The notes beneath the pieces were generated by a model, which saw only the letters and a list, made by a program, of their open reading frames with translations, had not been told where the DNA came from and searched no databases. Both the position numbers and the translations under genes were made by a program. Below, one piece after another: positions 7,364 to 7,900 of a stretch of DNA of 64,000 bases. The stretch spans positions 124,001-188,000 of the forward strand of contig JALHRQ010000004.1 in NCBI GenBank assembly GCA_022841375.1, given 5' to 3'. Origin of the DNA: Burkholderiales bacterium (GTDB taxonomy: Bacteria; Pseudomonadota; Gammaproteobacteria; Burkholderiales; SG8-41). Numbering within the stretch: the first letter of the stretch is position 1; each line of letters starts with the position of its first letter.

Positions 7364-7825
7364 ATGGAAATTCAAGCAGGCACTGCCGCGCCCGATTTCA
7401 CACTCGGTGCGCACAATTCCGACCAGAAGGTGACGTTGTCCGGTTTCAAGGGGCGAGCGGTCGTGGTGGCGTTCATGCCTTTTGCCTTCACCGGGGGATG
7501 AACCAATCAAGTCCGTGGGTTCCGTGAGAACTACGAAGAATTCAAGAAGCTGAATGTCGAGATCCTGCAATTGAGCATCGATCCGGTGCCGAGTCTGAAG
7601 GGGTGGGCCGATGTCCTGGGCGGAGTGCCGTTCCCGCTGCTGTCGGATTTCTGGCCGCATGGCGCGGCAGGCAAGGCCTACGGCATTTTCAACGAGGAGC
7701 GCGGCATGGACAAGCGCGCAGCCTACGTGGTTGACGCCAAAGGCATCATCCGTTACGCCAAGGTCTATCCGCAGGGCACGATCCCGACCAGCGAAGAACT
7801 GCTCGCCGAACTGCGCAAACTGTAA
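7364..7825 (+). CDS. Peroxiredoxin-like selenoprotein, in-frame UGA at the peroxidatic residue
   Basis: Read through the TGA at 7499-7501, the frame gives a continuous 153-residue AhpC/TSA-redoxin protein: APDFTLGAHNSD, VVVAFMPFAFTGG-U-TNQVRGFRENYEEF, then a complete C-terminal half ending in SEELLAELRKL. In AhpE/Prx relatives this position is the peroxidatic Cys (FAFTGxCT), so UGA replaces exactly that residue (U46). No cysteine occurs anywhere else, which fits a one-Cys-type selenoperoxiredoxin. Homology continues smoothly after the UGA with no frame change, and a SECIS-like hairpin follows. The start ATG 7364 has an AGGAG site 9 nt upstream, and an intrinsic terminator follows. A nonsense pseudogene is the alternative. 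Confidence 0.85.
7514..7535 (+). promoter_or_regulatory. Candidate bacterial SECIS hairpin of the peroxiredoxin gene
   Basis: Bases 7514-7516 pair with 7533-7535, G7517 bulges, and 7518-7522 (GGUUC) pair with 7528-7532 (GAACU), leaving the loop CGUGA. The loop has G as its second base and lies 22 nt after the UGA, within the spacing known for bacterial SECIS elements. Folding was done by eye. An alternative stem pairs GAACC at 7500-7504 with GGUUC at 7518-7522. Confidence 0.65.
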
Positions 7826-7860: not shown

Positions 7861-7900
7861 GCCGGCAGGCCAACCTTGGTGTTTACCTGCCGGCTTTTTC
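7861..7900 (+). terminator. Intrinsic terminator after the peroxiredoxin gene
   Basis: A perfect 9-bp stem, GCCGGCAGG (7861-7869) with CCTGCCGGC (7886-7894), is followed directly by TTTTTC. It ends the selenoperoxiredoxin transcript 36 nt after the stop codon, which supports that the gene is a complete unit rather than a decaying fragment. Confidence 0.88.

What the first reader, a model, noticed from the sequence alone, without database searches (positions are those of the whole stretch)
7364..7825. Peroxiredoxin with UGA exactly at the peroxidatic residue and no other Cys
Seen: in-frame TGA at codon 46 in the context FAFTGG-U-TNQ; the protein is otherwise intact, Cys-free, has a good ribosome site and a strong terminator. 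A hairpin with loop CGUGA follows 22 nt after the UGA. Established: AhpE/Prx relatives have Cys at this position, and selenoprotein redoxins are known. Inference: a one-Cys-type selenoperoxiredoxin, not a pseudogene.
Basis: partly seen in the sequence, partly recalled or inferred. Interest (0 to 1): 0.85.

Follow-up and report, generated by a model that had tools for sequence, protein, structure and literature searches.

The report
AhpE-type selenocysteine peroxiredoxin in betaproteobacteria
By sequence, this gene encodes a peroxide-destroying enzyme whose catalytic cysteine is replaced by selenocysteine, read from a UGA codon that its close relatives share, which suggests that some environmental bacteria use selenium for peroxide defence.

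Summary
Confirmed. Window 7364-7825 is an AhpE-type one-cysteine peroxiredoxin with in-frame TGA at codon 46, aligned with the peroxidatic Cys of M. tuberculosis AhpE, and no Cys elsewhere. The genome carries selA, selB, tRNA-Sec and a selD that itself holds a TGA. At least 27 of 399 sampled genomes of the order carry the gene, each with TGA (25 full-length at the same codon, two partial); all 27 have SelB (105 of 399 overall). Of 61 related named loci, 59 show TGA and two, actinobacterial, Cys.

Folding alone does not support it; comparison does: codons +6 to +10 show no synonymous change in 53 distinct sequences, and a diverged subfamily keeps the loop on another stem. The loop recurs in a second selenoprotein gene, though not in a third.

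Best reading: a genuine one-Sec peroxiredoxin (PxxxTxxU). Selenocysteine peroxiredoxins are known; the word AhpE is absent from six selenoprotein papers searched by term. The setting, several redox selenoproteins with no Sec formate dehydrogenase found, interests more than the gene alone. Activity and selenium content are untested.

The parts
7364..7825 (+). AhpE-type selenocysteine peroxiredoxin gene, 153 residues read through TGA
7499..7501 (+). Sec-encoding TGA, codon 46, at the peroxidatic position
7518..7532 (+). bacterial SECIS core: GGUUC stem, CGUGA loop (7523-7527), GAACU stem; 21 nt from UGA to loop
7352..7356 (+). AGGAG ribosome-binding site, 7 nt before ATG
7861..7899 (+). intrinsic terminator, 9-bp stem, 16-nt loop, T5
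   Evidence: the scan did not list it

Best explanation
The gene makes a cytosolic one-Sec peroxiredoxin of the AhpE subfamily. SelB with Sec-tRNA binds the CGUGA hairpin just downstream and inserts selenocysteine at UGA 46. The selenolate of U46, held by P39, T43 and R118 as in other peroxiredoxins, reduces a peroxide and becomes a selenenic acid; as there is no resolving Cys in the chain, an outside thiol (glutathione or a glutaredoxin/thioredoxin, perhaps fed by the TrxR-like protein encoded in the sel cluster) regenerates it. Shown by sequence: the TGA at the catalytic position, its conservation, the hairpin, the Sec machinery, the predicted fold. Inferred: actual Sec insertion, peroxidase activity, the reductant.
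For: AhpE alignment with U46 on the peroxidatic Cys; predicted fold pLDDT 93.5, the first 12 PDB matches all M. tuberculosis AhpE, TM (query) 0.93-0.94, 41-42% identity. P39, T43, U46 and R118 invariant in 25 orthologues. TGA in each of the at least 27 genomes with the gene, of 399 searched, and in 59 of 61 named loci. SelB in 27 of 27 versus 105 of 399 overall, hypergeometric 1.4e-17 with no correction for kinship. selA, selB, tRNA-Sec (75.9 bits, gathering score 47) and selD in the genome. SECIS: the five-codon windows starting at +6 and +7 have zero synonymous variation, the lowest of 147 windows in 53 sequences; in the 8 sequences of the second subfamily those starting at +6, +7 and +8 are the lowest of 149; the 5-bp hairpin is kept in 53 of 53; 5 of 6 pairs changed on both sides between subfamilies. 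The same CGUG loop on a covarying stem in a TlpA-like selenoprotein gene, loop in 15 of 15.
Against: The hairpin core is weak (-5.0 kcal/mol for 25 nt; the published model asks for -7.5 or less, passage in PMC13188914) and the window RNA has a competing fold; its upper stem is kept in 49 of 53, its lower stem fully in only 10 of 53. Within subfamily A the hairpin stem hardly varies, so the covariation rests essentially on one split between two subfamilies, with a codon shift between them and an alignment that I anchored on the loop; the outermost of the six pairs fails in 5 of 9 cores. A third selenoprotein gene of the same genomes lacks the loop. No protein, activity or selenium data. Kinship inflates the co-occurrence figure.
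Confidence: 0.93

Rival explanations
1. Pseudogene or sequencing error: TGA is a nonsense mutation in a dead gene.
For: Only that TGA is a normal stop in this genome (the gene just upstream ends in TGA).
Against: TGA in each of at least 27 genomes with the gene and in 59 of 61 named loci; differences from relatives after the TGA fall mainly on third positions, e.g. 10/7/39 by codon position against L036.
Confidence: 0.01
2. A selenoprotein, but not a peroxidase: the Sec serves another redox reaction, such as reducing a disulfide or sensing peroxide.
For: No biochemical data exist here; other AhpC/TSA-fold proteins are thiol-disulfide oxidoreductases.
Against: Those carry UxxC or CxxC (PMC9312934 table passage); here the motif is PxxxTxxU with a conserved Arg and no second conserved Cys, and the nearest fold is a known peroxidase.
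Confidence: 0.05
3. UGA is read by a generally reassigned code or leaky read-through, not as Sec.
For: None beyond the open frame.
Against: TGA ends the gene just upstream; full Sec machinery present; in the four other TGA genes seen, the TGA stands where a catalytic Cys is expected (by eye from motifs recalled, not aligned with Cys homologues).
Confidence: 0.01

Closest known systems
Mycobacterium tuberculosis AhpE (one-Cys peroxiredoxin; PDB 1xxu, 4x0x)
   Same: Subfamily, length, fold (TM 0.93-0.94), PxxxTxxC/U motif, Arg, no resolving Cys
   Different: Cys instead of Sec; reduced by mycothiol/mycoredoxin-1 (PMC4360819, passages), whereas a proteobacterium would use glutathione or thioredoxin (inference)
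Eubacterium acidaminophilum PrxU and the catalogued selenoprotein peroxiredoxins (COG1225/PF00578, TxxU; PMC9312934, PMC13188914, passages)
   Same: Sec at the peroxidatic position, PxxxTxxU motif
   Different: Scores 90.6 bits against the NCBIfam PrxU cut-off of 270; nearest relatives are AhpE; lineage in one order of betaproteobacteria
Prx-SUH thiol peroxidase (NCBIfam NF045827)
   Same: Peroxiredoxin whose name points to a selenocysteine form (not checked)
   Different: 36.5 bits against cut-off 298
Actinobacterial Cys AhpE (Flavimobilis marinus, L123; L124)
   Same: 43% identity, Cys in the U46 column
   Different: FSGIC instead of FTGGU; Cys form

Membership tests
AhpC/TSA peroxiredoxins, AhpE subfamily | AhpC-TSA domain over the curated cut-off | tested here: met
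   PF00578 113.8 bits, cut-off 26
AhpC/TSA peroxiredoxins, AhpE subfamily | Catalytic Pro-Thr-Cys(Sec)-Arg set | tested here: met
   P39, T43, U46, R118 invariant in 25 sequences; aligned with AhpE. Roles of the residues recalled; an R116A AhpE entry is seen
AhpC/TSA peroxiredoxins, AhpE subfamily | One-Cys type: no resolving Cys | tested here: met
   No Cys in the window protein; no second invariant Cys in 25 orthologues; of 61 distinct proteins 40 have no Cys, 18 one, 3 two
AhpC/TSA peroxiredoxins, AhpE subfamily | AhpE fold | tested here: met
   Predicted model; first 12 PDB matches are all AhpE, 41-42% identity, rmsd 1.3-1.4
AhpC/TSA peroxiredoxins, AhpE subfamily | Peroxidase activity | not testable with these tools
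   -
Bacterial selenoproteins | In-frame UGA aligned with Cys of homologues | tested here: met
Bacterial selenoproteins | Sec machinery (selA, selB, selC, selD) in the genome | tested here: met
Bacterial selenoproteins | bSECIS: loop 3-9 nt, stem 4-16 bp, G in the first two loop positions, 16-37 nt from UGA (rule read in PMC13188914) | tested here: met
   loop CGUGA (5 nt, G second), 5 bp, 21 nt; 24 nt in subfamily B
Bacterial selenoproteins | bSECIS free energy -7.5 kcal/mol or less (same rule) | tested here: inconclusive
   25-nt core -5.0; 55 nt -8.9 but in a competing fold
Bacterial selenoproteins | Selenium in the protein | not testable with these tools
   -
Known Sec peroxiredoxins, PxxxTxxU | PxxxTxxU motif | tested here: met
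   P39-FAF-T43-GG-U46; motif stated in PMC13188914
NCBIfam PrxU equivalog NF040737 | Score over cut-off 270 | tested here: not met
   90.6 bits

The most novel reading that the evidence does not exclude
These betaproteobacteria keep the Sec system for a peroxide-defence set and not for formate dehydrogenase: cytosolic AhpE-U, an exported pair TlpA-U plus Prx-U, a UxxC Prx-like protein and a Sec-containing SelD, with a TrxR-like reductase built into the selA-selB-selC cluster as electron source, and with a C-[CGUGM]-G hairpin, shared by at least two of these genes, as a signal that their SelB reads.
Probability: 0.45. Interest if true: 0.65.

Novelty: new member of a known kind. Interest (0 to 1): 0.52.

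Why it matters
It adds an AhpE-type branch to the selenocysteine peroxiredoxins, in lineages that appear almost only as metagenome assemblies. An early survey (PMC1794560, passage) described formate dehydrogenase as the only selenoprotein of Sec-using alpha- and betaproteobacteria and pseudomonads. Because Cys AhpE is well studied, a natural Sec form with no other Cys is a clean model for asking what selenium buys a peroxidase. The hairpin, seen with one loop on three different stems, gives a testable recognition motif for a SelB other than that of E. coli. Read with the standard code, the gene is cut short at residue 45.

Tried and rejected
Thermodynamic proof of the SECIS: the window RNA alone does not fold better than shuffles, so this line gave nothing; comparison was used instead. 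The competing lowest-energy fold was tested: upper stem kept in 49 of 53, lower stem fully in 10 of 53. Rfam on the window at gathering thresholds gave no match. A Cys orthologue in the order: the best listed full-length hit without a stop, G158 (37% identity, DWSPVC), is not of the FTGG type; the match list was capped, so weaker ones were not seen. The phylum sample (398 genomes, E 1e-24, profile A1) gave only the own genome and G158, so I did not pursue wider spread; at that strict cut-off distant relatives may be missed. Sec formate dehydrogenase: none of nine PF00384 matches in the own genome has an in-frame TGA, but only the matched parts were judged and no other FdhA test was run. Paper searches: Burkholderiales selenoproteins in MAGs, 0 papers; AhpE with selenoprotein, peroxiredoxin and selenocysteine, 3 papers, judged off the subject from titles and openings of abstracts only. 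The common-loop idea does not extend to the exported Prx gene: none of its 15 sites has CGUG[AC] in the 55 nt after the TGA; nor is it seen in the first 55 nt after the TGA of SelD or of the C2 Prx-like gene of the own genome (by eye).

Left out of the codon statistics: L057 (C-terminal fragment), L113 and L122 (pieces of one MAG, overlapping at the TGA), the partial hits of G131 and G301, and the Cys forms L123 and L124. The 82 sequences include the same gene reached by two searches, hence the count of 61 distinct ones.

Full report
Observation. The frame 7364-7825 is open except for one TGA at codon 46 (7499-7501), reads FAFTGG-U-TNQ, contains no Cys, and has a ribosome site and a terminator. 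As described, except that the loop CGUGA starts 21, not 22, nt after the UGA.

What the protein is. Pfam AhpC-TSA 113.8 bits. Closest solved relatives are M. tuberculosis AhpE entries (phmmer 2.4e-34), U46 standing on the peroxidatic Cys. AlphaFold2 from 25 orthologues gave pLDDT 93.5, pTM 0.90; the first 12 PDB hits are AhpE chains. It falls far below the NCBIfam cut-offs for PrxU and Prx-SUH.

Is the TGA selenocysteine? The assembly (4.08 Mb, 66 contigs) has SelB (421.5 bits), SelA (577.2 bits), tRNA-Sec (75.9 bits; ARAGORN anticodon tca) and SelD (419.3 bits), whose own gene has a TGA. Of 399 genomes sampled from the order, at least 27 carry the gene: 25 full length with TGA at the same codon, one in two contig pieces (G131) and one partial (G301), each of these two with one TGA in the match. 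The match list was capped, so weaker fragments may be missed. All 27 have SelB, against 105 of 399 overall; kinship makes the p-value of 1.4e-17 too strong, but four families of the order (f1, f3, f6, f13) are involved. Among named GTDB contigs, 61 loci: TGA in 57 by script and in L113 and L122 by direct reading (pieces of one MAG), so 59 of 61; the other two, L123 and L124, are actinobacterial Cys forms (FSGIC). One of the two peptide patterns of that scan was written with Cys, so it was not biased towards TGA. Of the 61 titles 56 begin with MAG; most name betaproteobacteria or Burkholderiales, one (L116) an alphaproteobacterium.

The SECIS. Energy alone is no support. Comparison is. The 82 coding sequences recovered collapse to 61 distinct ones, in subfamily A (53) and B (8). 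In A, codons +6 GGG, +7 TTC, +8 CGT and +10 AAC are each 53 of 53, and +9 is GAG in 35 and GCG in 18, while codons before and well after vary freely; the five-codon windows starting at +6 and +7 have zero synonymous variation, the lowest of 147; in B those starting at +6, +7 and +8 are the lowest of 149. GGG is 132 of 749 Gly codons in the A genes, 53 of them being this one position. B has the hairpin one codon further on with another stem, CUUCAAC-CGUGC-GUUGAAG in 7 of 8. Across the nine distinct cores, five of six pairs change on both sides and 90.7% of cells pair, against 65.8% in shuffles; the outermost pair fails in five of nine. This is essentially one evolutionary event, and I anchored the alignment on the loop. 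In an unrelated gene of the same genomes, the TlpA-like selenoprotein, the loop CGUGC is at the same place in 15 of 15; the stem is GCCYUC/GARGGC in 14 and GUCUUC/GAAGAC in L158, a both-sided change (stems read by eye). So C-[CGUGM..]-G looks like one signal of this lineage; the exported Prx gene does not have it (0 of 15).

Setting. The gene stands between an EamA-type transporter and an SDR gene (names by eye, not searched) with its own terminator. Four more TGA genes were seen in the genome: SelD; a TlpA/ResA-like WASWUTTC protein and an exported Prx (FTDTU) on C19; a Prx-like YRGDWURYC protein on C2 (export judged by eye). The C19 pair, TGA in both genes, is in 15 of the 27 genomes, side by side in 14 and on two contigs in G055. 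selA-selB is followed by a TrxR-like gene in 7 of 9 AhpE-U genomes looked at and in none of 7 other SelB genomes; yaeQ is in this place in 3 of the 9; tRNA-Sec was found by ARAGORN in 8 of the 9 stretches. These 16 genomes were picked by me, not at random. None of nine molybdopterin-enzyme (PF00384) matches has an in-frame TGA. By contrast PMC1794560 (passages) describes fdhA as the only selenoprotein of Sec-using alpha- and betaproteobacteria and pseudomonads.

Mechanism. Shown: position, conservation, predicted fold, machinery, hairpin. Inferred from AhpE (passages of PMC4360819: sulfenic acid, reduced by mycoredoxin-1 or mycothiol): U46 selenolate attacks peroxide, the selenenic acid is reduced by an outside thiol. 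Which thiol is unknown; the TrxR-like gene is a guess from gene order.

Novelty. Selenocysteine peroxiredoxins with TxxU or PxxxTxxU are known (PMC13188914, PMC9312934, PMC1088965, PMC1794560; passages found by term). The word AhpE has 0 occurrences in the main text of six selenoprotein papers where I looked for it: PMC1794560, PMC5029168, PMC13188914, PMC1088965, PMC9312934 and PMC12013277. Generic Prx entries may already hold such sequences, and supplements were not read. Hence a new member of a known kind, well supported.

Noticed in passing
G000:C19:21750-22922 (L030:4751-5926): Pair of exported selenoprotein genes, TlpA/ResA-like WASWUTTC and Prx FTDTU; TGA in both in 15 of 27 genomes, side by side in 14 of these 15.
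   Followed up: partly
L028:6709-11910 (G000:C3): selA-selB-TrxR-like-yaeQ-selC cluster; the TrxR-like gene follows selB in 7 of 9 AhpE-U genomes and in 0 of 7 other SelB genomes examined.
   Followed up: partly
L137:6259-6726 (G355): A diverged Prx (30% identity) with an in-frame TGA lies directly after selB.
   Followed up: no
L025 / G000:C15:11228-12157: SelD gene with TGA at GGGUGC near its start; a later in-frame TGA near the C-terminus may be its real stop.
   Followed up: no
L064, L075, L084, L087, L094, L106, L110, L112, L117: Nine MAG records titled Bordetella parapertussis carry the gene with 45-96% identity; the titles look like mislabels of environmental betaproteobacteria (inference).
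   Followed up: no
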